Source: Lepidurus packardi
Taxonomy: Eukaryota > Arthropoda > Branchiopoda > Notostraca > Triopsidae
Direction of reading: 5' to 3'
NCBI GenBank assembly: GCA_023053545.1
Contig: JAKZAN010000005.1
Coordinates: 5,704,001-5,768,000 of the forward strand
Length of the DNA: 64,000 nt
The translations under genes and the position numbers were made by a program. The notes below the pieces were generated by a model that saw only the letters and a program-made list of their open reading frames with translations, did no database searches and was not told where the DNA came from. This document shows, piece after piece, positions 12,983-58,799 of this stretch. Positions within the stretch are counted from its first letter, which is position 1; each line of letters opens with the position of its first letter.

Positions 12983-13081
12983 CTTTTTACATTAATTTTT
13001 TTACGTAATATTTTTACATTAATTTTTTTACGTAATATTTTTACATTAATTTTTTTACGTAATATTTTTACATTAATTTTC
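12983..13081. repeat. AT-rich tandem repeat, about 27-bp unit
   Basis: A unit reading roughly ttttacattaattttttt followed by acgtaatat is repeated about 3.6 times with almost no divergence. It ends less than 100 bases before the first readable exon of the alpha6-like receptor gene. The near identity of the copies indicates recent expansion. Confidence 0.9.
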
Positions 13082-13176: not shown

Positions 13177-16100
13177 GCTCCCTACAAGGCCCCCATGAGA
13201 AGCGGCTGCTCCACCATTTGCTGGACCATTACAACACTCTCGAACGTCCGGTGGCCAACGAATCCGAACCTTTGCAATTAAGCTTTGGCATCACTCTGCA
13301 GCAAATAATTGACGTGGTACGTATAAAACTCGTTATTAATCGAGAAAGAAAAAAATAAACGAAACAAAAAAATCCTGGGCCATCAAAGTACTCGGTAGTT
13401 AATTGCAGTGCAACATTGAGGGTTTTGGGTTGGATTAAAGCCGCGGGTATAAAATGTAATGCTGAAGGAGGCCCGGGTGTAATGTGACGTTTTAAAAGCT
13501 TGAGTAGCGAATAGTTATTCGTCAAGCTCACAGGGGCTAAGGTAACGTATACAATAGCTGGCAGCAAGGCCTGTCATCCATCAACGGCGTTTGCTTCCCC
13601 AAAGGCCAAAAATCTCAGCTATATTCCCCTCCCGCTACCCCCACAATTTCTTCCAGTACGGTCAAGCGCAAGGCTTGTGCTCGACATATACAACACGGTA
13701 TTTGCACCCCCCGTCATCATCATGATCACAGTCTTGTTAAATACACCAAGTTGTCCAGTCCATGTTAGACAGATTTCTCATGCGATCGTATTATTTTCCT
13801 AATGCCAGATTCGCGAGTCTGAATTTGCCAGAAATGTATTTCTGTTTTGGATACGGAATGGCTAAGTTTGAGCTCTGCACATAAATTTCACATGATAAGG
13901 GATTCCAGACACTTAAATATTTATCGGAAAAGTTTACTCCAGGCTGAACTATTTGATGCAATATTCGACAGTTATAGTTCGATCTCTGAATCAATAAGTC
14001 AGAGAACTTTGATCTCAGACAGAAAACTCAGAGAACTTTTTCTCAGAGAACAATAATTTTCCGGAAAGATTTAAGAAAAGCCTTATTCTACCCAGAATAC
14101 TATTTCCTCATAACAACTGTTTCTTGGGGAAATATTTCTTTATAAACAATCTTTCTTTCTTGAAGCAGGTCGTCGTAACTAAAGTGAAGCCAAACAATCT
14201 GCCACGTCGACTCGTAAGCTTAGATGAACATTAAATTCCCAGGTTAGATACGGAAGTAATAGGATCATTATTGTCTTTGCAAGAAAATGGATTTATTTTG
14301 TGGTTATGTTCCCAGTCTTTTCGGAAGAAAAGGGCAAAACATAGTATTTCTAAGAAACAACAGCGTAGCGAGAAGAGTTATAAGAGAGGAGGCAAGGTTT
14401 GTTTGTATTTCTTTGTTTTTGCTTTTATTCTGTGTTTCTGGTAAGTATACACATATACCTACGTGTGTGTACAGGAAGCCGTGAAGATCGATGGCTTCCT
14501 GTTCGGGGTCCTTTTTCTAAGTTCGTGCTCCACTTATAATACCAGCCTAGCGGTAACCACTGCACAGCGTCTCAGGAAATGTTATTGGGGTTCATTTGCT
14601 TGATGCTGTTATCAAGAACAAAGGTGACGAATCGAAGTCAAGATGCTTACGTATGGCTGGTTTTTTTTCTGGCTTCTGAATTGACTTTTTTTTTTCTCTA
14701 CACGATTTTTAATCTTTGCCCTGGCTATACTTCTACGACTACTACCACTACTTTGGATTTTTGCAGGATGAGAAAAATCAAATTCTCATCACCAACATGT
14801 ATCTCAACTTGGTAAGTTCCCACCCCCCTCGCACCCCGAACCCCCCCCCCATTTGTTCCAATAAACCTGTCCCTTCCTTCTCACTGAGAAGATATATATA
14901 TATGTATGAATATATATATATATAAAGTTCGTTTTAACAAAACTTAAAAAAAAAACTTCTAAAAAAGCTAGACATATTCTCTTCTCTTTGGCTTGATTTG
15001 TGAGCTTCCACCTCTCTATATACTTCTATTTGGCTGCTTGCGAAATGGGATTACTTCTTCTTCTTCCTGTGCACTGTGCTGGTTTTCCTTTACTCCGTTA
15101 ATTCACACATACATACACACACTGAAACAAAACAATCGACAAGGTTCTCCAAAATCTTTAGAGTTGCCTCTTTTTTCATGAATTTCCCATAAAAAAAGGT
15201 GCGGTGGTCCTTTATAGATGAATCTTGTTAGTTCTCAGAAGGATTCAAAGACACGCCAAAGAGCTGAAGTGACGTTTACTTTAAAACGTCTGCAATCATT
15301 TTAATAATAGTACTAATAATAATACCTACGATTTATTTGATTTCCATGTGGTGTGTCCCTACTTTTATTTTCGTGCGGCCTTCGAGATTTGCTGCGGACA
15401 TATTGGGTTTGGTGTTTTTCTCCACAACTTCGGTGATGTTAATGTATGGGGCCTTGTGAATCACAAACATAAGCATTTTTGTCACATCTGGGCTTTCTGG
15501 ATTTTTTTCTGGCTTTTCTTTTCTTATTTTTCTTATTTTTCTTTTCCCCTCATTGTCTGTGGCACAAAAAAGGACGAGAAGAATCAGCTTCTCATAACAA
15601 ACATGTATTTAAAGTTGGTGAGTAACTCCACAAACTTGCCTTTAAACATTTTTTCACCCTATATTTCTACGTTTCCTCCATCCATTTCCTGTTTTTCTGT
15701 TGATTTCATATTTTATTTATTTTTTTAATCTTAAAACGCCCGTGTTGTATAAAACTGACTCCCACGTCAGAAGCATGCTCAGTTTTTATATATAAAGCAA
15801 TATAATTTATTTAATTCACTGCAGAGGCGGAATGACTTTAATTTTATGACAACTCTGTATTAACTTTTCCTCTCTCTCCCTCAACTTTTATATATATAAA
15901 CATATATATAAAAAAACTAAAGAAAGCTAGATTTCAGCATAAAGAAAAAACGAGGAATGATCGCTTCACCGCATGTCACAACAAAGATGTAAACTCTCAT
16001 CTTAAAATTGAGCCCACCTTTAAGTAAAAAAATATAAAAAATGAAGACGATAAGTTGGACTCGATGAAAACTGAAGTAGAAAACTCTCTTTTCTTTCTTG

Positions 16101-19100
16101 GCATGTCTTTGGCCAAACGCCGCACCTGTTCCTTAGTTTCAGATTCTCCATCCACATGTGTGTCGTTACTAAGTGTGCGTGTGCGCGTATGTGTGTGTGA
16201 AACCGTCGACTCCGTTTTATTACTCATTAGCTTACAATGCCGGACCCGAATTGTAATTTGAAAGACACATCATTGGCTATTCATGCCAGTGCATTAGTAT
16301 TAGAGTAGGAGAAAGGCGAAGGAAATTGGATTGAGGAGTACTTATAGCAGCTACACAACAGATGGCAGAAGTTGCACATGAAAAGGCTATACGATGTTTC
16401 AACTAAACGGTTCAAAATGTAAAGAAGTTAAATCCTCAAACCTGATTGAGATCTTGTGTAGTTTTACGTATATTTCAGAGTGTGATCCTTAATTGACAGT
16501 ATCTTTTTTTCGAGTACATTGCTACAATTAGTTTAAGACTGAACGAATTGTGTTCACAGCTTTGTGTCCATAATTCAGTCGCTTTGGTTTGAGACTCTAA
16601 GCTAAAGACTTCCTACTATCGCATAGGCGAAACTTGAACTTTAAGTGTATTTTCTGCCATCGTACTGTATCGGAAAGTTCCCGAAAGGTTTATCAAGATT
16701 TATCTCACATAGTACCCCTTATTGTGTATACTTTGGGGTTTATGTAATGTACATTTATCTCTATTGGTACATCCTCTTCTAACATAAGTTATGGATGTGC
16801 TGTAGTGTCCTTACTCCAGTTTCGTTTAGTATAAATTTTTATAACATCATGTCCTCTGTTTCATCCCCGCCTTTGCGTCGGTTCAAAATGTGTGCTTTGA
16901 CTTGCATCTCGGTGTGATTTTGTGTGTTGTTCTACCCATTGATATGTTGATTTAGTTTTTCTCCGCTGCTTACCTTTGTTTCGTTTGCCAAGACATCATG
17001 TATCAGTGTTACCGAAGCTTGCCACCATTTGCTCGTATTTATCGCCCTTCTAAAAAAAGCTACAATTATGTAATGACTTGATAACATGATCCAGGGCACG
17101 ATAAAGCTAACATTTTCTCTACTTGGATTCTTCATCAAAGGAGTGGAACGACTACAATTTACGATGGAACACATCTGATTTTGGCAACGTGCGTGATTTG
17201 CGAATACCTCCACATCGAATTTGGAAGCCTGACGTTCTGATGTACAACAGGTAAATATACCTTAGAAAAGAGAATATATTACTTCTTAAGAAGGAATTTA
17301 ACCAATTTTTCGTGTATTGCACAGCGCGGATGAAGCCTTCGATGGAACGTATCCCACAAATGTGGTAGTCAGAAGTAACGGAAGCTGTTCCTATATTCCA
17401 CCGGGCATCTTTAAAAGTACTTGCAAGATTGACATTACCTGGTTCCCCTTTGATGACCAGCTCTGCGACATGAAATTCGGCAGTTGGACCTATGACGGTT
17501 TTCAAGTAGCTATTTCATAACTGTGGCAGACATGTTCGCACGGTTTGTAGCCACGTTTTAGGCTAATTTTTTCCTCTTTTTCTGTCTCTTTCCCTGTGGC
17601 CCATTTTGCCCTATTATGTAGCTGGATTTGCAATTGCAGTCAGAAGAAGGAGGAGACGTAAGCAGTTTTGTCACCAATGGAGAGTGGGAACTAATTGGTA
17701 AGCTTTATGGTACATTAATATAACTGAAGCCGGAAAAAAGGGAGGGGCGTACGAGTTCCAAAAGAAGAAAGAAATATCAAGTTTATTTTCTTTAACATAA
17801 TCTTTTATTAGAAAAAGGCTGCAATTCTAATGAGAGTTATTACTGTATTTATATGGTAGACTTACCTGCATATTAGTAGCTGGTTTCCGCACAGTTTAAT
17901 TGGGTGTCCGCTGTGCTATCTAAATTGTTTATACTGAATGGTTTTTCATTCTATATCTATTTAAATGTTTCATTGGTTGGTCGAGAGCGAGTTGGGTACC
18001 TCGGATTTCTAGTCCCAGCCATTTCTGGGGGGTATTTTGCGTTTGCTTTTAGGGGGTTAACTTTTATATTTTTATTATTTTTCTTTAATTTTGTTTTTGG
18101 GTTTACTAATATCGGAACGTCCATCCATGGCCCTGGAATTGAACTTTATCCCATTTTTCATCTATTTCTACCTCTTTTTCTCCTTTTAACCTTCCCCCTT
18201 CCCCTCACCATCCATTGATCCCTTGTTAGTGTGCCTTGGCCGTCATGTGCATATAGTGCAGCCGTTTCTATCCCATAGACCAGCTCATATGCATTCGTTG
18301 ATCACAGGCGGAAACGCAAACTTACGGAGCATCAGCAAAAGCTAACACAAATAAATATAACCATCTTGTTACTTTTTGGCAATCAGCTGGGTTTCACAAA
18401 CTTTTTTAGAAAAACAAAAAAAAAACTCCTTCTTTCTTATGCACAGCAGCAACGCAGACACCTTGAACTCTGTCCCTCGTCTGGAGAAACAAACACACGC
18501 ACACACACACACACATAACAGTCTAGTATGGCATCTCGTTGGCGTTTTCTAAAAACAAGCGAAAACCCCTTACTCATTATTCTAGCGTGCTTTTATTCTC
18601 CAAAGACTCATGTGTCTGAGGCAGAAAAAGAAACAAAAGAAAAAAATAAATAAGGAAGGGATGCCTCAGCGTACCACCTCACGTATATTATACATACATT
18701 TCCCACGGATTACAGCTTTTCTGTTTTTCTAATTCTGTTCTCGACAGATTTCTTACATTATTTTCATTCTTCTTTTTGAGTTTATGTTTCCCCGATTTTA
18801 TTTCCTCTTAAGCAAAAAGAAAAGAATAATTATGCTGGTCCTTGTCGTTAGAGGTGAAGTACCGCCCTTGACTTCTTTCTTTTCTTAAATGTTAATTTCC
18901 CCCGAGTTCACATCGTGGTGTTTACGTTTCCTTTTTTTTATTTCGTTTCTTTTTCCTTGTTTTTTCCCTAACAAAAATTTGTGTTTGTCCTAATTTAAAG
19001 CAAAAAATATGGAGGATTGTCGTAGATTCTCTCCCATTAAAAAGGCGCCCATACGAATGAACTTAAAACACCTTACCGATAAAATGTTAATGACTGCTAA

Positions 19101-22100
19101 ATAACGAAAAGCGCTAAAAAACAGAAAATGCTCTTTCTGATGCTCAGTTTTGCCCCCCATCAAGTGCATCTTTGCTGCGTCACCCGAACCCTCTTCACCC
19201 CCAAAAACCCCTCCCACCCCATGTTCCGGGAAAATGCTTGGTGCACATTTGCATGTCCATGACTATCCTGGATTAGCAGCAGCTGTCGGCGTCTTGTTAT
19301 GCTTTTCTTTCACTTATTTTTTTCCTCGCATCCAAAATTTTGCTGTCTTGCCCAAAGTTTTGTCGTGCTTCAACTTCGTGTAGCCTTGCTTTTCGTGTGG
19401 AGATGACATAACTCATCAAGAAGAAAGCAGCATGTGCGTGGAATGCTTTTCCAAAATTCTTTACAGCAAAAAAAAGAAAAGAAGCCGAGAGGCTCGCTTT
19501 TTTTTAGCTTGCATTCATTTCTGTGAAAATAGTCTATAAACATCTTAAACTTTAATAAATTTTGTTTTCAATCCAGGCCCAAAAAAATAACAGTTAGTAT
19601 TGAATCTTTAAAACAGAAAGGTATTAGTTTTGGTGGTTCTTTTATGTTTCCTCTATTCGTTATTTTAAATTTGTTTGGGTTTATTGTTTTCTTCTTTCAT
19701 TTTCTCCACCCTCTATCCCATATTTTCCTTGCAAAAAAAACACCATCGGGCTCGTGTACACACGCTTGCAAAATGTATAGGAACGCCCGGTAAGCGGAAC
19801 GTCATCTACTACGCCTGCTGCCCAGAGCCTTACGTGGATATTACGTTCCAAATCATCATCCGTCGCCGTACTCTCTACTACTTTTTCAACTTGATTGTGC
19901 CGTGCGTCCTCATTGCCTCTATGGCCGTCCTCGGCTTTACGCTGCCTCCGGATTCCGGAGAAAAGCTCTCTTTAGGTAACGATCTCTACTGTTATTAGTC
20001 TCTCTCTAGTATTGCTAATAGCCGTATGGGTTGGCACCCGCACATAAGACATACTAAAACATGCCACACACACTCACGCACATAATCATACACACATATA
20101 GTCAGTACACATAAAGTTGTAGCTATCAACACGATATTAGTGCAGCCAAGATCAGCGACGTATTCCCTCACCTTCTCGGATTTCAACCTCCCCCTCTATT
20201 TCCATCCTGTCAGCAAAAAAAAAAATTGTAAAAATATATTTTTACAATAAAGAAGACGCATCATCGAGGTCCAGACTCGCTCTCCAGATGGGGAAGTTGG
20301 AGGGAAGAGATCCGGGAATTTTTTGTTTCTGTCTCTGTTATGCTAATTAGGAGTGCCTGGACAACGCAATATCAAGTACTACACTTGCTGTCCGGAACCT
20401 TACGTGGATGTGACCTTCCAATTGCTGCTGAGACGTCGCTCACTCTATTACTGGTGCAACATCATCTTACCTTGCGTCATGATTTCTTCCATGACGTTGC
20501 TGGCGTTTACGTTGCCTCACGATTGCGGCGCCAAACTCACGCTAGGTATTTTGGCCCTCTCCTTCTTTTAAGCTCCCTTACCCATGGTGATATTTACCCT
20601 TCTATGAAAGAAAAGAATAATCCTCCAATTTTCATGCTGACCAAACAAAAACACTTACCTCTAGGGTGCAGCGGATTCGCGTACCAATTCAGGGCCAAAC
20701 ACACACGCTTCAACACACATTTTTTAACACAAAAGAGTGCGGGGCCATTGCGAATAAATAACTATGCCAGGTGATGTGTGTGAACTAACATGCTTTTCCA
20801 GGGGTCACCATTCTGCTTTCCTTGACCGTGTTTCTCAACATGGTGGCCGAGACCATGCCTGCCACTTCTGATGCCGTACCTTTATTAGGTAACCCTTTCA
20901 TGGGGTCCCTGCCGACTGTTATTTCTTTGGGAATCACGCGGGAGGAGGGCCTTCGAAAGATTTCCCCCACACAAGTGCTTAAGGGGACTCCTCATGATTA
21001 TATATACTTGGAAAGCGTCTGTTACAAGAGCAGAATCCATAGACCTTTCTGGGAGGAAGAGGCTCTTTTGTGTACTCGCTTTTATACCCAAAGGGACAAC
21101 AGAAGAGTCGTCGCTGAGTTCCTATTTGCTAGGTCTTGCATTGTGGCATCACTCTCTATTAGCACTTAGTACTTAGCAGTTTGCATGGTTGCTACGAAAG
21201 TAAAATAGCCGCCATTTTCTTTTTATTTGAAATCGTACATTTATTTTGTACATTTCTGGGTTTTAGAACCTTAGAAGAGCATGCTTGGCAGTTATATGAA
21301 CTCTCCCGGACATGTCGAAGGTTAAAGAAACAAGGGCCCGACAAGTCAACATGAAATCGATAGTCGTTATACAGATATAATTGATGATTGAGTTTTTTTC
21401 ATTGCGTCCCTCCCATTTATTTCTCTCGGAGATGCTGTTCCTCGGCTTTTCCATCTACCTATCTCTTCTCACTCTCTCTTTCTTTCTCTCTCACTTTCTC
21501 CACGTTTTGTGATTTGGTTAAATGGTGGTGGCTCGCTCTTTCTTGTCTCTCTATTATATAATATAGGAGTGACGGTGCTGTTGTCGCTCACTTTCTTCCT
21601 CAATAGTGTGGCCTCGGCTATGCCGCCTTCCTCTGCTAACCCTTTGATAGGTAATCGCACCAGTTTACCTTGCACTCGCCGTGTATTACTCGTCTCCCGT
21701 GTCATCGGCGCACCTGATTGTTCACTTGTTCCATGAATTTTTATATACAACCTGTCTGTGTGGATTTTTTCACCTCCCCCAAATATCACGAAAAGAAGAA
21801 AAGAAGTTACTTGGGGTCATCAGGGACCAAAGGAAGGGACACAAAAGCAAAAATAGAGCTATACCATGCCATGGAGAATTCTACGTCTTTGTCAGATCTA
21901 TCTTTCTTTGGCTTTTCAAACGACAAAAATCGAAACACGAAGAGGGGCGCGGAGGTAAATAAGCACGAAGCCGATTGAGCAAATGGTCTGTGAAATTTGG
22001 AAAAGGGAAATCATCACTTTTCATTTCTTTTATTTATAAGCTGCAAAAAACAACAAACAATTTTTGAAAGTGTTTCTAACTCTATAGACTTGGTTATTGA

Positions 22101-23865
22101 ATTTTTGCAGGCGTAACGATCCTCTTGTCGCTCACTGTCTTTTCCCTCATGATCTGCGACACGCTTCCCGAGAGTTCGGATGCCATTCCTGTGTTAGGTT
22201 AGATTCTATATGCACAAAAAGTCATGTCCTGCCATGTCTCATCGTTTTCTTTTAAAACCCAACAAGCTAAAAAAATAAACAAATAATAATGGCTTAATAA
22301 AAATATATAACCAAACCGTGTCAAAAAGTGGGAGAGCGATTTATACTTGTGGGTGGCGGTTTTTTCTGGCATGTTAAAAACTTTTATCGGAGAATTCTTT
22401 AGCAGTTAGCATGTGTTAATGAAACCAACGGTGTATCATTTCAAGTCAATTCGTAATTGGGCATTTTCTAAGTCTGAGCAGCTAAACTTTACGCATGAAG
22501 CATGGCTTGACAACTATAAACAAAAAACCGTTTTAAAAAATAAATTGCACCCAAAAACAAATCCTATATTTACATATCCCATCCCGTTTGAAGCTGATAA
22601 GGCTTCCATAAACAGAGACATATCTCCCAAAATTTCTTATTTTTTTAATAAATAAAAAGGCTATGGGAAGTCGTGGTTTTTTAAATACTCTTGTCTTTTC
22701 GCTTGCTCTAAAAATCTCAAATGAAGGTTCGCGTTGAAAGAATTCCACACATACACATATACAAAAAACGACCCAATAAACAGCAACGCCCTCCTCCCTC
22801 TGACTCCAAGTAACGCCGTCTTGTGTCTTTGATATATAACTTGTTTTTGTAATAACTGAATTGGTTTTATCATGACCAGTTGCCTCTTAAATATTCCGTA
22901 CAGTAACTGCATGCATAGTAATTTTTAATTACTGTTTCCGTTCGTTTCCGTTATTGTAGCTAATTATTTTTTGGATGTTTGTTTCATTTCAATACGCTTT
23001 TGTCTGTCAACTGTATAGAAACAAATTATAGCAACCAATCAAAAGTTTTCGCTAATCGTGTGTTTTTTATTTGGTACAGGAACGTATTTCAATTGTATCA
23101 TGTTCATGGTGGCGTCTTCTGTGGTCTCCACGGTCCTTATTCTCAATTACCATCACCGGAATGCAGAAACTCACGAAATGACACCTTGGGTAGACTTTAC
23201 ATTATCTTTCACAGTTCCCAAAACATGTCATCTGTTCATTTTAGTATTATTTTTTTTAAATGTCTAGTATTTTTTAAAAATTAGATTAATGAACTAGAAA
23301 TCAATCAATGCAGGTTCGCACCTTGTTTTTACAATGGTTACCTTGGATCTTACGCATGAGTCGTCCCGGAGAGAAAATTACGCGCAAGACGATCATGATG
23401 AGTCATAAAATGCGCGATCTAGAAATGAAAGAGCGCTCCTCGCGGAGTTTGCTGGCTAACGTACTGGACATCGACGATGACTTCCGCCAGATGAGCTCCT
23501 CTTCCATGTTGGGCATGGGCGGTGGTGGTGGCGGTTCAGGGGCCAGTAGTCACCATCACGGCTTGACTTTACCCGCTTACCATCACCATCGCACCCCCAG
23601 CACACCCTCTGCCTTGCCCTTACACGAGGATCCAGCCTTGATCCACAATTGCTTGGGCGCGCACCGCGAGTTGTCGCATATTCTCAAGGAGATACGTGTC
23701 ATCACAGACAAGATGCGTCAAGATGAGAGCCACGGCGAAGTGACAAATGACTGGAAGTTCGCTGCCATGGTTGTCGACCGCATTTGCCTCATCGTCTTCA
23801 CGCTCTTCACCGTCATCGCCACCATTGCTGTGCTTTTCTCAGCACCCCATATCATCGTGCCCTGA
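13177..23865 (+). CDS. nAChRalpha6: Nicotinic acetylcholine receptor subunit, arthropod alpha6 type (5' exon missing)
   Basis: Subunit of a pentameric acetylcholine-gated cation channel in the neuronal plasma membrane; the Drosophila counterpart Dalpha6 is the spinosad target. Constitutive exons: 13177-13316, 17141-17250, 17325-17505, 17622-17697, 23080-23189 and 23314-23865 (stop 23863-23865). Alternative exons: 3a/3b, 7a/7b and 8a/8b/8c, listed separately. Phases agree for every combination. The start QGPHEKRLL, the Cys-loop [17 protein letters not shown], the vicinal CC of loop C (CCPEPY), TM1, TM2, TM3 and the C-terminal HIIVP match the insect alpha5/6/7 group; QLDL-type exon junctions also match. 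The TM3-TM4 loop carries an unusual Gly/His-rich stretch at about 23515-23600 ([15 protein letters not shown]). About 498 residues are readable per isoform. The signal-peptide exon was not found. Family assignment is very secure; alpha6 versus alpha7-like paralogue naming is slightly less so. Confidence 0.95.
14767..14811 (+). CDS. nAChRalpha6: nAChR alpha6 alternative exon 3a
   Basis: A 45-base exon with AG before and GTAAGT after, reading [15 protein letters not shown]. It encodes part of the ligand-binding domain, the strand that follows QQIIDV. Insect alpha6 genes carry two alternative exon 3 copies at this position. The sister copy 3b lies 760 bases downstream with the same length and phase, so both included together would duplicate the strand. 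Mutually exclusive use is inferred by analogy. Confidence 0.93.
14891..14925. repeat. (TA)n microsatellite in nAChR intron
   Basis: Two runs of alternating TA are separated by a short interruption, between alternative exons 3a and 3b. A similar weaker TA-rich patch lies at about 15885-15910, downstream of 3b. Confidence 0.85.
15573..15617 (+). CDS. nAChRalpha6: nAChR alpha6 alternative exon 3b
   Basis: A 45-base exon flanked by AG and GTGAGT, reading [15 protein letters not shown]. It differs from 3a at only two residues (I/L and N/K). The low divergence means either recent duplication or strong constraint; silent sites differ at many codons, which favours constraint. Confidence 0.93.
19781..19975 (+). 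CDS. nAChRalpha6: nAChR alpha6 alternative exon 7a (loop C, TM1, start of TM2; canonical pore)
   Basis: A 195-base exon with acceptor tatag and donor GTAACG. It encodes loop C with the agonist-binding vicinal cysteines ([14 protein letters not shown]), TM1 ([16 protein letters not shown]) and the TM1-TM2 turn [10 protein letters not shown]. The glutamate of GEK is pore position -1', the intermediate charge ring that in cation-selective nAChRs supports cation and calcium permeation. This copy agrees with the single exon found at this place in insect alpha6 genes, so it is the conserved version. Confidence 0.95.
20351..20545 (+). CDS. nAChRalpha6: nAChR alpha6 alternative exon 7b (loop C, TM1, start of TM2; neutral -1' pore residue)
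   Basis: A second exon of exactly 195 bases with the same start and end phase as 7a, acceptor attag and donor GTATTT. It keeps the loop C core ([14 protein letters not shown]) and the three arginines before TM1. TM1 is changed ([16 protein letters not shown]), and two extra cysteines appear, one in TM1 (WCN) and one in the turn (HDCGAKLTL). The -1' glutamate is replaced by alanine, and 2' serine becomes threonine. There is no stop, frameshift or damaged splice site, so it looks functional. Mutual exclusion with 7a is inferred; use of both in series would place two TM1 segments in one protein. Confidence 0.92.
20802..20888 (+). CDS. nAChRalpha6: nAChR alpha6 alternative exon 8a (TM2, canonical)
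   Basis: An 87-base exon encoding [18 protein letters not shown] and then [11 protein letters not shown]. It supplies pore positions 4' to 20' with leucine at 9', valine at 13' and glutamate at 20', as in insect alpha6 and vertebrate alpha7. Acceptor ttccag, donor GTAACC. It is the closest of three TM2 exons to the ancestral sequence. Confidence 0.94.
21567..21650 (+). CDS. nAChRalpha6: nAChR alpha6 alternative exon 8b (TM2, divergent)
   Basis: An 84-base exon, one codon shorter than 8a and 8c but in the same phase. It encodes [18 protein letters not shown] and then [10 protein letters not shown]. Position 13' is phenylalanine instead of valine, 17' is serine, and the outer-ring 20' glutamate is replaced by serine. 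One residue is missing in the TM2-TM3 linker, and its conserved aspartate (SDA) is absent. Acceptor atatag, donor GTAATC. Confidence 0.9.
22111..22197 (+). CDS. nAChRalpha6: nAChR alpha6 alternative exon 8c (TM2)
   Basis: An 87-base exon encoding [18 protein letters not shown] and then [11 protein letters not shown]. Pore 15' to 19' differs from 8a (SLMIC against LNMVA), and the outer ring keeps a negative charge as aspartate. Acceptor ttgcag, donor GTTAGA. Three alternative TM2 exons are known from insect alpha6 genes, so this cluster is ancestral in outline. Confidence 0.93.
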
Positions 23866-26039: not shown

Positions 26040-28685
26040 ATGAAGAGCCCGGTTTCCTTGTGGGTCATTGTAGTGGTATCGATATACTTCTCTAGCCAAG
26101 GAGGTCAGTATATTTTGCTGCAGAAATATTTCCAGGTTTCTACTTATAGCATAACACTTTATCTAAGAGGAAATTTTCCTTTCCTTTTGGTGTTTTCACT
26201 AGCCCTCGGTAGTGCCTGTACGTGATATTTTTCAGCTGTCGTTGTTTTGCCGGAGCTGCCCCGTCTAGACTCTGTGGCATAATAACTTGATTTCCTAAAA
26301 GAAAAGCTTCATGGAAACTAAATGCTTTATTTTTTCGGCTATATCCATTAATCTTCCGTGTGACTTTTTCGATCCATAGGTTTGGGCTCAGAAGATGAGG
26401 AACGTTTGGTACGCGATCTGTTCCGAGGCTATAATAAGCTCATCCGGCCTGTCGAGAACATGACGATGAGAGTAGAAGTGCAATTTGGACTGGCTTTTAT
26501 TCAGCTCATTAACGTGGTACGTGGACTACCCCGTAATTTTCCGTCTCTTCGCTTTTCTTTGTTAAAAAATTTTGTTAAAGAAAATATGTTTTCTTCTTTT
26601 CAGAATGAAAAGAATCAGGTCATGAAATCCAACGTTTGGCTGCGACTAATGTGGAAAGATTACCAACTGCAATGGGATGAAGCTGACTACGGTGGCATTG
26701 GAGTCCTCCGCTTGCCGCCCGATAAAGTCTGGAAACCGGACATTGTACTTTTCAACAAGTACACCTTTCTTTTTACTTTACAAACCATATTTTTTATAAG
26801 TATTTAAATATAATGATTAGAATAATACTCGTTTTATTTACAAATGGAGACAAGTAAACAGTTTTTTTTTATTCTTTTCGGTAAATAGTGCAGATGGGAA
26901 TTACGAGGTTCGATACAAATCCAACGTACTCATCTACCCCAACGGAGAAGTTTTGTGGGTTCCCCCTGCTATCTACCAGGTATTTTCATCGAAAGAGTAA
27001 CCGTGGAACAAGCCCTTGTAATTCGCCAACTTCTCACTGAACGCACTTTTTATCAAATGCGATAATAGCCACACAACCATATGTTCAAGTCCAAATTATT
27101 CTAAGAACGGTGAACTTTCTTTAAGTTATGTCAATAGCCGTTCGCGAGACCGGTGCTTGCAATGAGTAATGACGACACATAAGTTTCACGGCGTTGGCTT
27201 ACAGTACTTGTTACCATGGTTACCATTTACTTCTACGTTTAAAACAGTAACCAAATGGCTCTAGAGTACCATGGATTTACTCAATATCTTGAAATAAATT
27301 TAGATTGTTAGCGACTTCTTTCGGGAAGTCCAATTGTTTAAACGGCATTGGTTTCTTCCAGAGTTCGTGTACCATCGACGTCACTTACTTCCCTTTCGAC
27401 CAGCAAACATGCGTCATGAAATTCGGCTCCTGGACTTTCAACGGCGACCAAGTATCGCTTCGTCTCTATAACAATAAACACTACGTGGATCTGTCGGATT
27501 ACTGGAAATCTGGAACCTGGGATATCATTGAAGTGCCGGCGTACCTTAACGTCCACCAAGGCACGCCCACATCGCCTACTGAAATGGATATTACATTCTA
27601 CATCACCATTCGTCGTAAAACTCTCTTCTATACCGTCAATTTGATCCTGCCCACGGTGCTCATTTCTTTTCTCTGCGTGCTGGTCTTTTACTTGCCCGCG
27701 GAAGCCGGCGAGAAAGTCACTTTGGGCATTAGTATTCTGCTTTCACTGGTCGTTTTCTTGCTGCTTGTATCCAAGATCCTACCACCGACGTCTTTAGTCT
27801 TGCCTTTGATCGCGAAATACTTACTTTTCACCTTCATTATGAACACCGTATCGATTCTGGTCACAGTGATTATCATCAATTGGAACTTCCGTGGTCCCCG
27901 AACTCATCGGATGCCCAATTGGATCCGCGTTGTCTTCCTCAAATATTTACCCATTTTGCTTTTCATGAAACGACCCAAGAAAACTCGCCTGCGTTGGATG
28001 ATGGAAATGCCTTCTGATGGACTTGTAGGGGGCAGCACTTTGGGAATTCCGACCCCTGTTTCTATCCCAGTAGGAATCCCAGCCCCTCCCCCGTTACCCT
28101 TCAGCGCTACCACCCCACCCACTTTGCGGAGCAAGATGGAAGTCATGGAATTGGCTGATTTACACCATCCGAATTGCCGGATGAGTAGACAAAACAGCGA
28201 ACAAACCCGGGAGCAACGCGAGCGCGAGCAGCGTGAAAATGATCAAAGAGAACTGCCTTCGCGTGAACCTGATCCTCCTGATGCGATGATCTTGACCCCT
28301 GAAGCTTACAAGGCCACAGAAGCTGTCGAGTTCATCGCTGAGCACTTGCGCAACGAAGATGAGTACATCCAGGTACTTATTTCACTTTTGTTTGGTTGTT
28401 TAATTTTTTCGCATTACAAATCGAAATGTTTCATAATCGTTTTAATATATAATTATCAAATTATGTTAGATCCGGGAAGATTGGAAGTACGTAGCCATGG
28501 TTATTGATCGTCTTCAGTTGTACGTTTTTTTCGCTGTGACAACGGCCGGTACTATTGGCATTCTCATGGATGCGCCGCACATTTTTGAGTACGTAGATCA
28601 AGACAAAATCATCGAAATCTATCGAGGTAAGCACTGTTGTGTACGACCGTCGTTTTTCTATAACTGGACTTGGATTTCAGGGTAA
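26040..28685 (+). CDS. nAChRbeta1: Nicotinic acetylcholine receptor subunit beta1 (ARD type)
   Basis: Non-alpha subunit that combines with alpha subunits in most arthropod neuronal nAChRs. Exons: 26040-26103 (signal peptide MKSPVSLWVIVVVSIYFSSQ), 26380-26516, 26604-26758, 26889-26979, 27362-28372 and 28470-28685; phases agree throughout and give about 557 residues. Diagnostic stretches shared with Drosophila beta1 include SEDEERLVRDLFRGYNKLIR, the Cys-loop region SSCTIDVTYFPFDQQTC, TM2 (GEKVTLGISILLSLVVFLLL) and the end FEYVDQDKIIEIYRGK. Loop C lacks the vicinal cysteine pair, as expected for a beta subunit. The TM3-TM4 loop has a Pro-rich segment and an Arg/Glu-rich segment (REQREREQREN). 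The C-terminus is uncertain: after IYRGK the frame continues 15 more codons, but a strong donor (CGAG then GTAAGC) sits exactly there. The gene starts 2.2 kb after the alpha6-like stop on the same strand. Confidence 0.95.
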
Positions 28686-46775: not shown

Positions 46776-49700
46776 CTACTTCTGTCTTACATCCCACACA
46801 CCTTGGCTGAATTTCTCGACCGTCAGGTCTCCCGATACTAGTTTACAGGTTTTCAAGTTTTGCATATAAAATACTAACTCCGAAGTCACCAATCTACACA
46901 AGTAAACAGAAATTAAAACCCCAGATCAAATCAGTATTTAAAAAAAAAAAATAGTTATTTTACCCATGTTGAGGTCCTCCATCATTAGGAATCGCCAATT
47001 TCTGCAATCGGGAGCCCAATTTGAGCTGGAAATGAATGTTGAACTTGGATATGATCTGCTGGATCTGCGAGGAGGGCAAAACAGGACCAATCGCTTCCTG
47101 AAGCTTCGCCAGCTGCTTACAAATAGCTTTGAAAGAGGCAGAAGGCACTGGCGGTTTGGCTTCCCATTGGCTCAGATGCGCGTCCATCATTTCGGACAGT
47201 AGCGTGACTAATTTCAGCTCAATTTCGGCCACGTGGTCCGAGTAGTCTTTCACTAATTGGTCAAAATGCTTGGTCATTGTCAACTGCTTAGCCTGAAGCC
47301 TGGATTCAAAATATAGCTTCAACCTAGAACCCGCCAACAATTTAGTTAAGAAAAAATTCGACAACATTATCTTTTTAAGAGAGTTTACTTGGGAATGAAC
47401 AGTTGCACTAGCTGCAAACTCCGGGAAGCTAAAGCCAATGTTTTGCTCGAAATAGTCTTCAATCCAGCCACGTGCAACGCTCCAGCGCCCAAAACTAACT
47501 GGCAGCATCTCGAATTGAAGGTTTTTAGCAACTCAACGACGCGGGTAAGCAAATCAGGGGCTGCTGAAGGCAAATCCACTACGCACTGCCCATACTCTAG
47601 CAATAAGGGCAACAAATACAAAGCTGCCCCTACTACAGCGTAATTTATCCCATCCACAGTCACGTGATCTTGACTAGGACCAGAACTACCAAGGGACCCT
47701 GTCCCTATTCGCCTAGTAAAGCACCACTCGCCTAAAAATCACAGTTATTACAGTTTAAGTTTTCTGGAATTTGACTATCAAGCTAATTTACCCTCTCGTA
47801 TACAACAGTCCAACATATTTCGTAAATCCTGAGGCACATCGGCTTGTTTCCACTTTTCGCTGTCCAGCATAACTCCCAATTTTGTTCTTCGTTCCTCATG
47901 GAAACGTTGTACGAATTTAGTCGCCTAAAATATTTACACATTAATATGTGATCAAAGATTATTAGGCGAAAGTACTTGACTCTGGAAGGCAAGTCTCAAG
48001 GCAGTGGATTTTTTCCCACAAATTGCTTCTGACTGATTAGCAAACTCATCGACTAACTGGGCCAAGGCCAAAAACTCGGGCGAAGACAGTCTTTCGATCA
48101 AACCCCCATCTTTAGTTCGCGCTGTGATCAATTTTGCACACTTTTCATGGGCAGCATCACAAACGGAGTGCATCATCTCTTGCAGGGATGAATGCAGCTT
48201 GGAATAAAGCGTTTCATTAAGAAAAACATCCTCAGCATTCCTAGAAATATTTAAGTTTATAAAGAATAGATAAGCTAAGAATGAAATATTCTTTTTACAA
48301 TGAAACACGGGCTTCACTTCCATCTTTGCTCTGACCAGCTGCCAAACAAGCCACATGAACCATAGCTTCATAGATTCCCTAGAATATTCGTTTAAAAAAA
48401 GAACACTAATTATCCAATTAGGAAAATAACTCACTTGGACGCGTTTGAGCAATGATGTCAATGCAGAGGTAGAGTTCTGGAGAAGTTCAAACCAAAGCTG
48501 ATACGGTAGAAGTCGAACTTGCTCCAATAACGTAGTTCCTGATCCCGCCACACCACTGGAAGGGGTATGATCCATATCGGTACGAGAAATGGCTTCGACT
48601 ACAGTCTAAACATATAAAGTCTTGTAGACAATGTGAAAAATTCTGCAGACGATGGACAATATATTCAATTCTTAATATTTGTTTGAAGTACTATGAGAAC
48701 TTTTCATAAAATAAAATTATTATACTTGTTTCATAACAGCTTTAATAGTAGTAAGTGCTTCTTCACGGAAGATTTCCACAAACGTATGATTGCCCTGTCT
48801 TAACATTCCCATGACTACGCAAACCAAACGCTCTTCCTCTTGAAATATGCCTTCCATATCCCAAGGTCTATTCAGGGCCGATGTAATATATTTATGAAAC
48901 TCCGCTTGAAGCATTTTATCAATCAACCGCTCCATTTCTGAAAGCTGGGGACCCAAATTCCTTTCCAAAACAGAAATAAGATTAAGTTCCTGCTGCAAAT
49001 ACACAATAAGTCATTACTTGAAACAGTGAATATTGGCTAATTCTAGCTGTAGGACTTCCTGGGTGGTGTGAATGAGATCAAGAGCCCCCACATAGTCGGA
49101 GCTAGACAATAATAACTGGATTGTCGGCTGAGTTTGATGGACTGTGGCCATTAATTTTAACTAAGGCAAGAAAATGCTTTAAAATTTAAACTTTTATTTC
49201 GACTTTGAAAATACTTTTTCTATTAATTGGAGCTGGTGCTGATGAGAAGTTTCTAACTTGATGACTTGCCATGATTTGGTAACCAAACACTCGTCTATTT
49301 CGTTCACCTTCAACCTAACAAGGACACATCGACAAATTCAATAACTTAATTAAGATTCATTCACGAGCTTCAATATAAAATATACCGTAAGGCCTTTAAT
49401 GCTGTTAATGATTGTTGCAACTGCCCTCTGAGAACGTCATGTGATGCCACGGCAGCGAAAAAAGATTCAGATTTGGAAGAAATATGATGTGCCAAACTGG
49501 CTTCAACTTCATCCAAATAGATTGTTAACTAAACAGAAAATAATCCATAGGCGAATAAAAGGGTATTCACAATCCTTTTACTTTTTCCTGCAAAGATTTG
49601 GAATTTCGTGAAAAACTTCGAGCAAAGCTTTCGCCTTCTTGGTCTTTCTGAAAAGAAAAAACTCGGTCGAAAACATCAGGATCGCTGAGTCGGAAATTAG

Positions 49701-54012: not shown

Positions 54013-57000
54013 CTAGCTCAAATCCATGGCAGATCCCTCCGTCAAAAGAGCGGCTGAATCTTTCTGGGTGGATTCAAACAAGGATTGGAGCTCGGGCGTT
54101 GTCTTGATTTGCGTCACGAAGTCATGCAATTGAGGATTTTTGTCTATGAATCAAATGTATCGAAATTAACGTCAAACCTTATCCCAAACTGAATATTTTA
54201 CCCGAATCCGGAATTGCCAGTAATGCTGCAGTAGCTCGCATGGCAGACCGCTTCAATTCGTCTTGCTTTTCATACTCCTGCTTGACCGAATAAGCTTTAA
54301 CTTTTGTGGTACAGGTTCCTCTCAACGGCTCCACCAAACGATCCAATCCTACAATAAACAAGAACTCAATTTTTCTCCTATTAGACCAAAATTTAATTTG
54401 TACGTTGAAGAACAGCAGCAGGACACAAAGCAGCTAGGCGTGCTAGCATCAAATAAGTCAGCATCTTAATATCGTAGTGATCTTTGAGCCCGGCTTCTAC
54501 TTGGGACAAAAATTCAAAAACATCTAAGCGATCCAAACAGGAATCCAGGAGCGTGTACATGCATTCAAAGGCGGCTTTACGTAGGTCCAATCCATCGTCT
54601 ACAGTGTGCTTGAAGGGGCCCATTTCAACCTCTCTGACTAGTTCTTTCTGTAAAAATCAAATTAGAAAGCAGCAAAAAGTTACAAATATTTTAATGATAA
54701 AACCTAAAGCCAAAACATTATTTGAGGATTTCTTTTACCCGAACTTTAGTCTCATTATATAACTGAGGTAATAGGGAGTCGAGCAAGTCCCGAATCAAAG
54801 ACGGTTTGTTATGGGCTGCGGAATTAAAGGCAACTAACGCCACTCGGCGTACTTGCAGATCCGAGTCTTGCAAAGCTGACAAGAAATGACCCATACATGG
54901 TTTCAACAAAGGGTCAATAGGACTCGGCTGATCGCTGATGGTGAATTTAACTGCTGTCACGACGGTAGTTCGCATTAGCGGTGATGGATTCTCCAAAGCC
55001 CCCTTCAAAATGAAAGGTTTAAGGATACCTATAACATAATATGCGTGGCTTCATTACCTTTAGCCTGGGGAGAAGAGTCTGGGGATCACTTAAAGTCAGT
55101 TTGCCTAAACATTCAGCCACGACATTCCTGGTCCCTTCCTCTGGACACTGGCAATGTCTGAATAACAAATCCCAAATTTCGGATACAAAGGGTTGTAACT
55201 TAGCCACCCCGTTTTCATGACTCGTTTCCCATGTGATTACCTAATTTTTGTTATTTTTTTAGAAAAAAAAAGACAGAAAAGATGAATAACACATTTAGTT
55301 TTCCATAGAGAATTACTTCTTTGAGTGAATGGAGCAAAAGGTACTGTCGTTTAGCCTGGGCTTCGATTTGTTGCAAAATGAACGGCAAGAACGCTGGTAA
55401 ATTGCCTAGAGCTACGGATCCTAACGCGTGGGATGCAGCGGATTTGACTTCTTCATTGGAAGGGGTAAAAGAACTTAGAATCACGTCACAAACTCCTGGA
55501 ACTCCATGTAGATCACTAGTGCAAACAAACCAATGAAACAATCAGCATACAAACAGTCTAAATAAAACAAGGAAAGTATATGTACATGTGCTTGCCAATC
55601 TCTCCAATGGCTAATAAAGAAAAAATATGTTGCGCGTCCGTACGGGGCTTTTGGGCGTCTTGTACAAGCTGACGGACCAACTGAGAAGCTTCTTTACCTT
55701 GGGTCACTGCTAAAGCTGCTACACTTTGAGCCAACGAATAAAACGCCTACATATTAATTAAAAAGAAAAGAATATAAGACATCGATACACGATCATTACA
55801 TGTATACCTGTTTATGCAAATTGCCTTGTGAAACCATAGACACGAACATCGTCAAGAGTTCGCGATAGCCTAATCCTGGCAAATGGGCTGCTACTAAAGC
55901 TTGTAAAAATTCCAGCAACGACGCTAAAGCTGATCCTAAAAAAAGTATAAAAATACTCTTATTCAGTTTTTAATCTCAAAAATACCATAAAAGGAAAACA
56001 TTCTTAACACTTTATGAGAGCAACAAAGCTTACTCTGTGAAAATTTACTAATTATTACTCAGTTATTTTACGTTTGAAGACATCCAAAACTACTTCTAAA
56101 TGTAAGGAGAGAATAAGCAGGATTTAAAAAAATAAAAACGCGCATTTTTCTTTAATAAAATTCCACTGAATTGCATTTAAATTAATTTCATTTAAATTCC
56201 GCTTAATTTCATTTCCATTTTATTTATTTATAAACTTAAAATTTAAATGTATAAATTTAAAATTTATAAATAAATGAGAAAAGGCGAACTGAAAAACTGC
56301 GGCAATTTGCTTAACTTATCATAATAATAATATAACAATGTATTTTTATTAATACTTAAACAAAAGGCAGCCTTTTTTTAAACTGAAAATAGGGGTAAAA
56401 GACGTAAAACTCACCTTGAAGCAATGGCGACCGAACCAATGATAATACTTCCGGTAGAACGGCATTAGCCAATGGAGGTAAAGTCTGCGGGTGCAACTTC
56501 GCCACTGAAGTAAGCAACGACAACGTTAATTGGGCGATATGCAAATCCGATTCAGACAACAATGGCGGTAATTCCACCAAAACCTAGAACAAAAATATGA
56601 AAATCAAAATTTGACTCAAAACAATTCCTAGTTACCTTTATCAGCATTTCAGGGGCAATAGCCGTATTATAATTCTTGACCAATGTCTCCAAGAGCGTCA
56701 AGGTGCTCAATTTGAGTGCTCTTTGATTCTTCCTCAAAAATCCTGCCAAAATCGGCAAGGCTTCCCCCAAAAGCGGCCTTAAGTCCACTTTCAGCGGTGA
56801 CGATGCGATCCTCGTCAGAGCTTTGACCGTGGTCAACCTCGTAATCTCGTTCCTCAAGCGATCCAAAAAAATCGGCAAACACGTGACCAACTCATTCTGT
56901 AAATGATCACCCAAGTGGCTAATAATCTGGCCCATGCATGCAATAGCCCTCTCTTTGACTTCTTGGTCAATATCCGCCGCCCTAAGTCGACTCAAGGTGC

Positions 57001-58799
57001 AACTGTAAAGATCCGCCGTAAACGGCGTGAAATCAAAGTTGCACGCAGTGTCCAACGGTCTTATAACTCTTACGATCTGCTGGAGGACCAACAATCCTTC
57101 CGAAGTGATCTTATAGAAGGGATCGCTTACAGACGCAAGCAAAGACGACATAAGCACCCTTACATGAGGATGAAAAATGCTAGGAGGATGCGTCGCAAGC
57201 AAGGTGTGCAGGAAAGACAAAGTGTCAATCTTCATATTGGACGCTGCGTTTTTCTCAGTTAATGAGAACAGTAAACCCGGGATTAACGCAGGAACGTGCT
57301 GGGTCAAGCAACCTGGACAGACGTGAATTAATTCTGTGAGGAGTGCCAAGCATCCTTGGCGTGTCTTCACAGATTTCTCCTTCAGTTGCTTATGTAAAGC
57401 TTTAATCATAGCTGGAACTTGTTGTTGGAGCAACGTCATGGGACTTTCTTTGTGTTGCATCGCTTCGGAGTCGTGCGCAAGCGCCGGTTTCGTCTGTTTT
57501 AAGAGGACTATGAAGGCGTGGAAGATGTCGGCTTTCACGTTTTCCTCGCGCTCCTTAAAACGGTTGATTAATGCAGGTGACACGGTTTTGTATAACTCTG
57601 TTAGAAGATCCACACGAGAGGCAATGATGGCTTCTAAGCATTTTGCGGCTGCACGGCGTACTTTCCAGCTCATGTCGTCGTCGTCTGAATATTCGTCATC
57701 CGTGCCTTCGTTTTCTTCGTTCTCGGTCTCCATTCCGCCGTCATCCGGTAAACCTTCGTCTTCCTCGTCTTCGTAGTTGTAATTCGGATCGTAGCAGATG
57801 AAATCCAGACAAAGGGATACGATCGTGGGAATATGGGCTGACATTTCCTTGTGGCAACGTTCAATGAAGGCTTTAAGGGCTTGCAAACAGTATTCTCGCA
57901 GTTCGTCGTCTTCTACTTTGACGTAGCGGACGACTAAAGGTACTGCGCGTTCCACATGCTCGCCAAAACGGTGTCCGGCTTGACAACAAATAGCTCCGAT
58001 GCTCTGGACGTAGGTTCGCGTTGCAGAGGTGTTTCCTGATTTGGCTAGGCCTTCCATAAGGTGTTCTACAAGTTTTACGTAGAGAGAGTGGTGACATGAC
58101 GTAACAAGGTAGCCGAGAGCAATGATGGTGCGCTTGCGGACTGCCAAACGAGGGGAAGAAAGCTGGGGTAATAGCGCTTCGAGAATAGAAGGGTGGAAAC
58201 CAACCAATAGGCTTCCAAAGCGAGACAGGAGGTCGCCAAGAATGTCCAGAGCTTCTAGTTGGACTGAAATGTCTTCTTGCTTAGAGATGGCGGTGCTTAG
58301 CCGGCCTGTAACACGTTTGCAGACAGAGGCGGCTAAAGTGGAGGCGGTTAGGGGGAGTTCGGCAATCACGGTTTTTAGGCCGATAGAGGAAATATCCCGA
58401 AGTTGTTCTTTATCGGAAGTCATGTTGTTGCAGAGAGTGTCAACTATGGTTTCGACTTGGTGTTCTTTAACTTTACTGACGAGGGGGCCAAGGCATTTGA
58501 CGGCGAGGTTCTGTACTTCACCGTTCTTGTCTTCGAGCAAACGCAGCAGCATCTTAACTACTTTCCTCTCAGAATCATCGTCTAATTTGATACTATCTTT
58601 GTGGAGTTCAACCATAAGATCATTGGTGGCCATAAAGCGAAAATCTTTATCACTGGAAGCCATCTAGTTAACAGAAAATGTTATTATAGTAATCTTCGTT
58701 TTCTGACTGTGATTTTGAATTATAAGTTATTATATATAATACAAGTTAGCAATGTACCTTCTCCAGTAAGTTGGCTATGTGATACGACACTGCAGACAT
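54013..58799 (-). CDS. CAND1: Cullin-associated NEDD8-dissociated protein 1
   Basis: Binds un-neddylated cullin-RBX1 and exchanges F-box and other substrate receptors of cullin-RING ubiquitin ligases. Exons on the minus strand: 58799-58758, 58663-56636, 56583-56415, 55935-55808, 55746-55586, 55515-55317, 55240-55058, 55002-54739, 54647-54404, 54348-54202 and 54143-54013. All borders are GT-AG, phases agree, and the length is about 1231 residues (human 1230). It starts [20 protein letters not shown] and continues in HEAT repeats. Shared landmarks are [36 protein letters not shown], the acidic loop [20 protein letters not shown] at about residue 330-345, [30 protein letters not shown] and [12 protein letters not shown], ending GSAMDLS. 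One exon of 2028 bases holds over half the protein. It is highly conserved and clearly functional. Confidence 0.98.

What the first reader, a model, noticed from the sequence alone, without database searches (positions are those of the whole stretch)
19781..20545. Duplicated loop C/TM1/pore-entry exon in an alpha6-type nAChR, with loss of the -1' glutamate in one copy
Exons 7a and 7b are both exactly 195 bases, in the same phase, with good splice sites, 375 bases apart. Both keep the agonist-binding CCPEPY. In 7a the TM1-TM2 turn reads SGEKLSL; in 7b it reads CGAKLTL. The glutamate before the TM2 lysine is pore position -1'. In vertebrate alpha7, replacing it with alanine abolishes calcium permeability, and an alanine in this region is typical of anion-selective Cys-loop receptors. 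Inference: splicing 7b into the subunit would neutralise the intermediate charge ring and change calcium permeability or selectivity. Insect alpha6 genes that I know of have one exon here, so this looks like a lineage-specific splice switch acting on the pore and the binding site together.
Basis: partly seen in the sequence, partly recalled or inferred. Interest (0 to 1): 0.88.

Follow-up and report, generated by a model that had tools for sequence, protein, structure and literature searches.

The report
Old alternative receptor exon, charge lost
A crustacean-like acetylcholine receptor gene carries a second, old and widely shared version of the exon that forms the binding loop and the inner mouth of the ion pore, and in this animal that second version has lost the negative charge that in a vertebrate relative is needed for calcium to pass.

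Summary
In detail: two intact 195-base exons (7a 19781-19975, 7b 20351-20545), same phase, both with CCPEPY, reading SGEKLSL and CGAKLTL. The interpretation needs three corrections. (1) The gene is alpha7-type; the alpha6-type gene lies about 45 kb upstream on the other strand, with one exon 7. (2) The duplication is not lineage-specific: a 7b-type exon occurs in predicted proteins of 14 named species, from cockroaches and locusts to bugs, thrips, crab, spiny lobster and prawn. An exon tree groups window 7b with them (support 90/89) and rejects window 7a and 7b as sisters (AU p 0.0044). (3) What looks private is the E-to-A change: 22 of 22 other 7b-type copies found keep GEK, as do 12 of 12 other readable nAChR-like exons of this genome. 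Published alpha7 work predicts a still cation-selective pore with little or no calcium permeability. Exon 8b also lacks the 20' glutamate, so splicing could set both charge rings. No transcript evidence was available; 15 of 17 database models carry 7a and 7b in tandem, so exclusive use is inferred.

The parts
13177..13316 (+). exon 2 (start of the ligand-binding domain); exon 1 was not located
   Evidence: splice sites and reading phase
14767..14811 (+). exon 3a (alternative)
   Evidence: 73% identical to the insect exon 3 type
15573..15617 (+). exon 3b (alternative)
   Evidence: 87% identical to the insect exon 3 type
17141..17250 (+). exon 4
17325..17505 (+). exon 5 (Cys-loop)
17622..17697 (+). 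exon 6
19781..19975 (+). exon 7a: loop C, TM1, TM1-TM2 turn with GEK at -1'
   Evidence: alpha7-type 7a in the exon tree
20351..20545 (+). exon 7b: loop C, TM1, TM1-TM2 turn with GAK at -1'
   Evidence: groups with insect and decapod 7b-type exons
20802..20888 (+). exon 8a (TM2 to TM3 start), E at 20'
21567..21650 (+). exon 8b, S at 20' and F at 13'
22111..22197 (+). exon 8c, D at 20'
23080..23189 (+). exon 9 (TM3)
23314..23865 (+). exon 10 (intracellular loop, TM4, stop)

Best explanation
The window holds an alpha7-type nicotinic receptor subunit gene of a crustacean-like arthropod (probably a branchiopod; inferred). It has three groups of tandem alternative exons: 3a/3b, 7a/7b and 8a/8b/8c. 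Exons 7a and 7b are an old pair shared with many insects and decapods. One of the two is spliced between exon 6 and one exon 8, swapping loop C, TM1 and the first turn of TM2 together. Shown by sequence: the structure, the age of 7b, alanine at -1' in 7b and serine at 20' in 8b. Inferred: 7b is expressed in place of 7a. Inferred from vertebrate alpha7 work: subunits with 7b weaken the intermediate charge ring and give a cation channel with little or no calcium permeability, graded by the number of 7b subunits in the pentamer; pairing with 8b would also neutralise the outer ring.
For: Intact exon, phase and splice sites. 7b-type exons in 17 of 124 proteins from two searches, 14 named species, plus 5 of 120 listed fragments of a third search. 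Exon tree: 12 7b-type rows including the window's form one group (90/89, below the starred level); window 7a+7b as sisters rejected, p 0.0044. Two predicted isoforms use a 7b-type exon alone (Scylla X7 P0012, Thrips palmi X1 P0049). pN 0.22 against pS 0.69 between 7a and 7b. 22 of 22 other 7b-type copies have E at -1', so A is most simply derived here. The alpha7 E237A mutant loses calcium but not monovalent permeability (passages of PMC2064938; PMC5447003) and stays cationic without a proline insertion (PMC6800317).
Against: No transcript of this animal was seen. 15 of the 17 proteins with a 7b-type exon carry 7a and 7b in tandem, which may be a gene-model artefact or real double inclusion; 195 bases keep the frame either way. 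The 7b donor is weak. Window 7b has a long end branch (0.54). pN/pS averages over the whole history of the pair and cannot exclude recent relaxation. The calcium effect is carried over from vertebrate alpha7 and depends on the partner subunits.
Confidence: 0.6

Rival explanations
1. 7b is included together with 7a, or in a product that does not conduct. The subunit with a doubled loop C/TM1, or one that fails to assemble, acts as a dominant-negative or regulatory form, so the missing glutamate has no pore role.
For: 15 of 17 predicted proteins with a 7b-type exon carry 7a and 7b in tandem. Both exons are a multiple of three, so double inclusion stays in frame. Bombyx alpha6 transcripts with exons 3a and 3b in tandem are reported (PMC2045683 passage).
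Against: Two predicted isoforms use 7b alone (P0012, P0049). The conservation of loop C, TM1 and the pore turn in 7b-type exons across insects and decapods is hard to explain if they never conduct.
Confidence: 0.15
2. 7b is losing its function in this lineage; alanine at -1' is a tolerated or mildly damaging change in a little-used exon.
For: Weak donor, long end branch of window 7b, and an otherwise nearly invariant residue lost.
Against: No stop or frameshift, intact splice dinucleotides, loop C residues kept, and an alanine codon at least two base changes from glutamate.
Confidence: 0.12
3. 7b is used, but alpha7-type subunits here work in mixed pentamers with GEK subunits, so the lost charges change calcium flow only slightly and the main effect of 7b is on agonist binding or gating through loop C and TM1.
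For: 12 of 12 other readable nAChR-like exons in the genome are GEK. 7b differs from 7a at many loop C and TM1 positions. Elsewhere 7b-type exons keep GEK, so their older role cannot be the charge change.
Against: Drosophila alpha7 and cockroach alpha7 can form homomers in expression systems (PMC3444433 title and passages; PMC7221154 passages).
Confidence: 0.08
4. 7b makes the receptor anion-selective, a splice-made inhibitory acetylcholine receptor.
For: A simulation of human alpha7 E-1'A predicts inversion to anion selectivity, with a part played by the 20' ring (PMC8011927, abstract, passages and part of the discussion); this gene varies at 20' as well.
Against: Known anion-selective acetylcholine receptors have Pro-Ala here (PMC4055736 passage); 7b has Gly-Ala. 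In alpha7, E-to-A without the proline insertion stayed cationic (PMC6800317), and the simulation paper itself says experiments disagree with it. Position 13' is V in 8a and 8c and F in 8b, not the T of the laboratory conversion.
Confidence: 0.05

Closest known systems
Insect nAChR alpha6 alternative exons 3 and 8 (PMC1919356, passages)
   Same: Tandem duplicated exons in the same gene group; the window gene has the 3a/3b and 8a/8b/8c groups too
   Different: That paper's text has no 'exon 7'; here the duplicated exon is 7, covering loop C, TM1 and the -1' ring, and the gene is alpha7-type
Tandem 7a-type/7b-type exons in predicted alpha7 proteins of polyneopteran insects, bugs and decapods (database models)
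   Same: Same exon, same position, same 7b signature ([11 protein letters not shown]), order 7a then 7b
   Different: All copies found keep GEK; the window's reads GAK
Laboratory mutant alpha7 E237A (Bertrand 1993, known only through PMC2064938 and PMC5447003)
   Same: Same residue, same substitution at -1'
   Different: Engineered and present in all five subunits; here natural and in one alternative exon
Tribolium nAChR alpha9, which lacks the GEK motif (PMC2064938 passage)
   Same: Natural loss of the -1' glutamate, with the same consequence proposed by its authors
   Different: Property of a whole divergent subunit, not of one alternative exon in a conserved alpha7-type gene
Anion-selective acetylcholine receptors of schistosomes and molluscs (PMC4055736; mollusc protein P0013)
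   Same: Alanine in place of the glutamate before TM2
   Different: They carry Pro-Ala; 7b carries Gly-Ala and is alpha7-type
Bombyx nAChR alpha8 alternative exon 7 (PMC2045683 passages)
   Same: Duplicated exon called exon 7 in an nAChR gene
   Different: Covers TM2 and TM3, not loop C and TM1; described there as a more recent duplication

Membership tests
alpha7-type nAChR subunit (arthropod alpha5-alpha7 group) | Ligand-binding and transmembrane domains of the family over their length | tested here: met
   7b/8b form: PF02931 positions 1-215 of 216, PF02932 1-232 of 233
alpha7-type nAChR subunit (arthropod alpha5-alpha7 group) | Vicinal cysteines of loop C | tested here: met
   CCPEPY in 7a and 7b
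alpha7-type nAChR subunit (arthropod alpha5-alpha7 group) | Groups with alpha7-type, not alpha6-type, proteins | tested here: met
   Tree of parts outside exons 7 and 8, split 89/92, below the starred level
alpha7-type nAChR subunit (arthropod alpha5-alpha7 group) | GEK motif before TM2 | tested here: inconclusive
   Met in 7a, not met in 7b
Old 7b-type alternative exon of alpha7 | Common descent with 7b-type exons of insects and decapods | tested here: met
   Group of 12 rows 90/89, below the starred level; local duplication rejected p 0.0044
Mutually exclusive exon pair | Tandem homologous exons of equal phase and length | tested here: met
   Both 195 bases, same phase
Mutually exclusive exon pair | Transcripts contain one or the other, never both | not testable with these tools
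   No transcripts held; database models are 15 tandem and 2 7b-only of 17
Anion-selective acetylcholine receptor | Pro-Ala in place of Glu before TM2 | tested here: not met
   7b reads CGAKL; rule from PMC4055736

The most novel reading that the evidence does not exclude
In this lineage an old alternative exon pair has become a calcium switch. Choice of 7a or 7b sets the inner charge ring (E or A at -1') and choice of 8a, 8b or 8c sets the outer ring (E, S or D at 20'), so one gene writes six pore chemistries by splicing, each 7 choice also bringing its own binding loop.
Probability: 0.3. Interest if true: 0.75.

Novelty: new variant of a known kind. Interest (0 to 1): 0.52.

Why it matters
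The exon 7 pair extends the splice repertoire described for this receptor group to the agonist loop, TM1 and the inner pore mouth, and places it deep in the history of insects and crustaceans. Receptors of this group include insecticide targets (alpha6 is the spinosad target; PMC5111602 abstract, listing), and cloning work that assumes a single exon 7 would miss isoforms. The glutamate loss is a natural counterpart of a classic laboratory mutation and gives a direct test: is calcium entry through an alpha7-type receptor set by splicing?

Tried and rejected
Recent local duplication of exon 7: rejected by the exon tree; the 200-base flanks show little similarity (local alignment scores 26 and 21 against 77 for the exon).

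A second exon 7 in the alpha6-type neighbour: none among hits with E below 1 in L009, which covers its exons 6 to 8. A further exon 7 or a fourth exon 8 in the window gene: none beyond those listed; the 'HNLV' exon 8 of other taxa matches only 8a, 8b and 8c there.

Base-pairing elements for mutual exclusion: the nine inverted repeats between exon 6 and 8c are mostly AT-rich; one species cannot test them.

Other proteins with alanine at -1': of 260 exon-7 motif copies in 244 fetched proteins, one, a mollusc protein reading SPAK. Limits: only the best 120 of 3294 and 120 of 400 hits were listed, and clustering at 90% identity can hide a 7b isoform behind a 7a representative. This matters for Daphnia (P0034) and Artemia (P0027), so absence of 7b or of GAK in other branchiopods is not shown.

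Naming the organism: not achieved. A COX1 probe met several copies with in-frame stops and gave no name.

Script faults: one search used a pattern that missed tandem copies (replaced, which still missed four divergent copies, read directly); one search matched almost nothing; one search matched nothing and was replaced.

Full report
What is there. 7a spans 19781-19975 and 7b 20351-20545, both 195 bases, flanked by AG and GT, entered and left in the same phase. They belong to one gene on the + strand with exons 2, 3a, 3b, 4, 5, 6, 7a, 7b, 8a, 8b, 8c, 9 and 10, from 13177 to 23865; exon 1 was not located. With exon 3a, all six combinations of exons 7 and 8 translate without an internal stop. The 7b/8b form matches both Pfam domains of the family nearly end to end, and the exon 7 plus exon 8 part of both forms has human alpha7 chains as its best solved relatives.

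Which gene. A tree of parts outside exons 7 and 8 puts the window gene among alpha7-type proteins, next to Daphnia (83/75), and puts a second gene of the same genome with insect alpha6 proteins (89/92); neither branch reaches the starred level. That second gene (L009, minus strand, its exon 2 about 45 kb from the window gene's exon 2) has one exon 7 ending in DSGEKLTL, one exon 3 hit and two exon 8 copies. The window gene shows the 3a/3b and 8a-8c groups that PMC1919356 describes for insect alpha6 (passages).

How old is 7b. A search with the 7b region found 13 proteins, 11 of them predicted proteins of polyneopteran insects that carry a 7a-type and then a 7b-type exon. A search with the whole protein (3294 hits, 120 listed) added planthopper, kissing bug, thrips, spiny lobster and prawn models, and a barnacle protein with a divergent second copy. 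Of the 124 proteins from these two searches, 17 carry a 7b-type exon by a motif rule that leaves the barnacle out; they come from 14 named species. 15 of the 17 carry 7a and 7b in tandem; two carry 7b alone (P0012, P0049). A third search with the exon alone (400 hits, 120 listed) added five fragments. In a tree of 29 rows and 66 columns, 12 7b-type rows including the window's form one group (90/89, not starred). Holding window 7a and 7b together costs 17.9 log units and is rejected (p 0.0044). Adding the barnacle copy to the 7b group is not rejected (p 0.35). Several rows, window 7b among them, have long end branches. The pair most likely predates the split of these insects and decapods. The dipteran and lepidopteran alpha7 proteins listed show only 7a, which suggests loss there but does not prove it, because clustering hides isoforms.

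What is special here. In the fetched set, 259 of 260 exon-7 motif copies in 244 proteins have E at -1'; the one alanine is a mollusc protein reading SPAK. All 22 7b-type copies are GEK. In the window's own genome, 12 of 12 other nAChR-like exons in which the position could be read are GEK, 7a included; two further hits did not reach it. The alanine codon GCC differs from GAA at two positions, so a single sequencing error does not explain it. 7b keeps the loop C tyrosines and cysteines. Window exon 8b has S at 20', as does the 8b of Daphnia P0034, whereas the 8b-type exon of the polyneopteran models has E. Among 148 exon-8 segments found by a motif in 124 proteins, 128 have E, 15 D, 2 A and one each S, Q and G at that position. 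Between 7a and 7b, pN is 0.22 and pS 0.69, which speaks for selection on the protein over their joint history but not for the present.

What it should do. From papers seen as passages: alpha7 with this glutamate replaced loses calcium but not monovalent permeability (Bertrand 1993 as cited in PMC2064938). A charge model gives a zero calcium fraction for E237A and names 20' as the main determinant among the charge positions compared (PMC5447003). Without the proline insertion the alanine mutant stays cationic (PMC6800317). One simulation predicts inversion to anion selectivity and says that experiments disagree (PMC8011927, abstract, passages and part 1 of 2 of the discussion). Known anion-selective acetylcholine receptors carry Pro-Ala (PMC4055736). 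The likely effect of 7b is a lower calcium fraction with cation selectivity kept, graded by subunit mixing; the 20' change in 8b could add to it. Elsewhere 7b-type exons keep GEK, so the older purpose of the pair must lie in loop C, TM1 or something else.

What is not known. No transcript of this animal was available. The tandem 7a-7b models of other species and the weak 7b donor leave room for double inclusion or rare use.

Novelty. Ten full-text searches of open-licence PMC papers were made, nine on splicing and exons and one on permeation. I saw listings, and passages or sections of 13 papers, none of which described a duplicated exon 7 in an alpha7-type receptor. The text of the cockroach alpha7 cloning paper has no 'exon', 'splic' or 'isoform' (PMC7221154). 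Most subscription journals are outside that library. Tandem exon duplication in this gene group is a known kind; the exon affected and the charge loss are a new variant of it.

Noticed in passing
window 21567-21650: Exon 8b has S at 20', where the 8b-type exon of polyneopteran models has E and Daphnia P0034 also has S; barnacle and spiny lobster models show A or G at 20' in an exon 8. Loss of the outer ring charge in one alternative exon 8 may be recurrent in crustaceans.
   Followed up: partly
L009 1891-9955 (minus strand; contig C4 near 5.664-5.672 Mb): An alpha6-type gene divergently oriented to the window's alpha7-type gene; one exon 3 hit, one exon 7, two exon 8 copies, one of them unusual ([28 protein letters not shown]).
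   Followed up: partly
window 26364-28504 (+): Another nAChR-like gene directly downstream (Pfam ligand-binding and transmembrane domains in 27293-28504, AGEK at the pore mouth), so three receptor genes lie within about 70 kb.
   Followed up: partly
window 46963-48605 (-) and 56555-58663 (-): Open frames resembling Vps54 (46963-47532, just below the Pfam cut-off) and CAND1 (56555-58663, TPR_CAND1).
   Followed up: partly
window about 12985-13080: A short AT-rich tandem repeat (TTTTTACATTAATTTTTTTACGTAATA-like units) just upstream of exon 2 (seen).
   Followed up: no
other contigs of the same genome (L024-L031): Several COX1-like stretches with TAG or TAA inside lie in large contigs, as expected of nuclear copies of mitochondrial DNA.
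   Followed up: no
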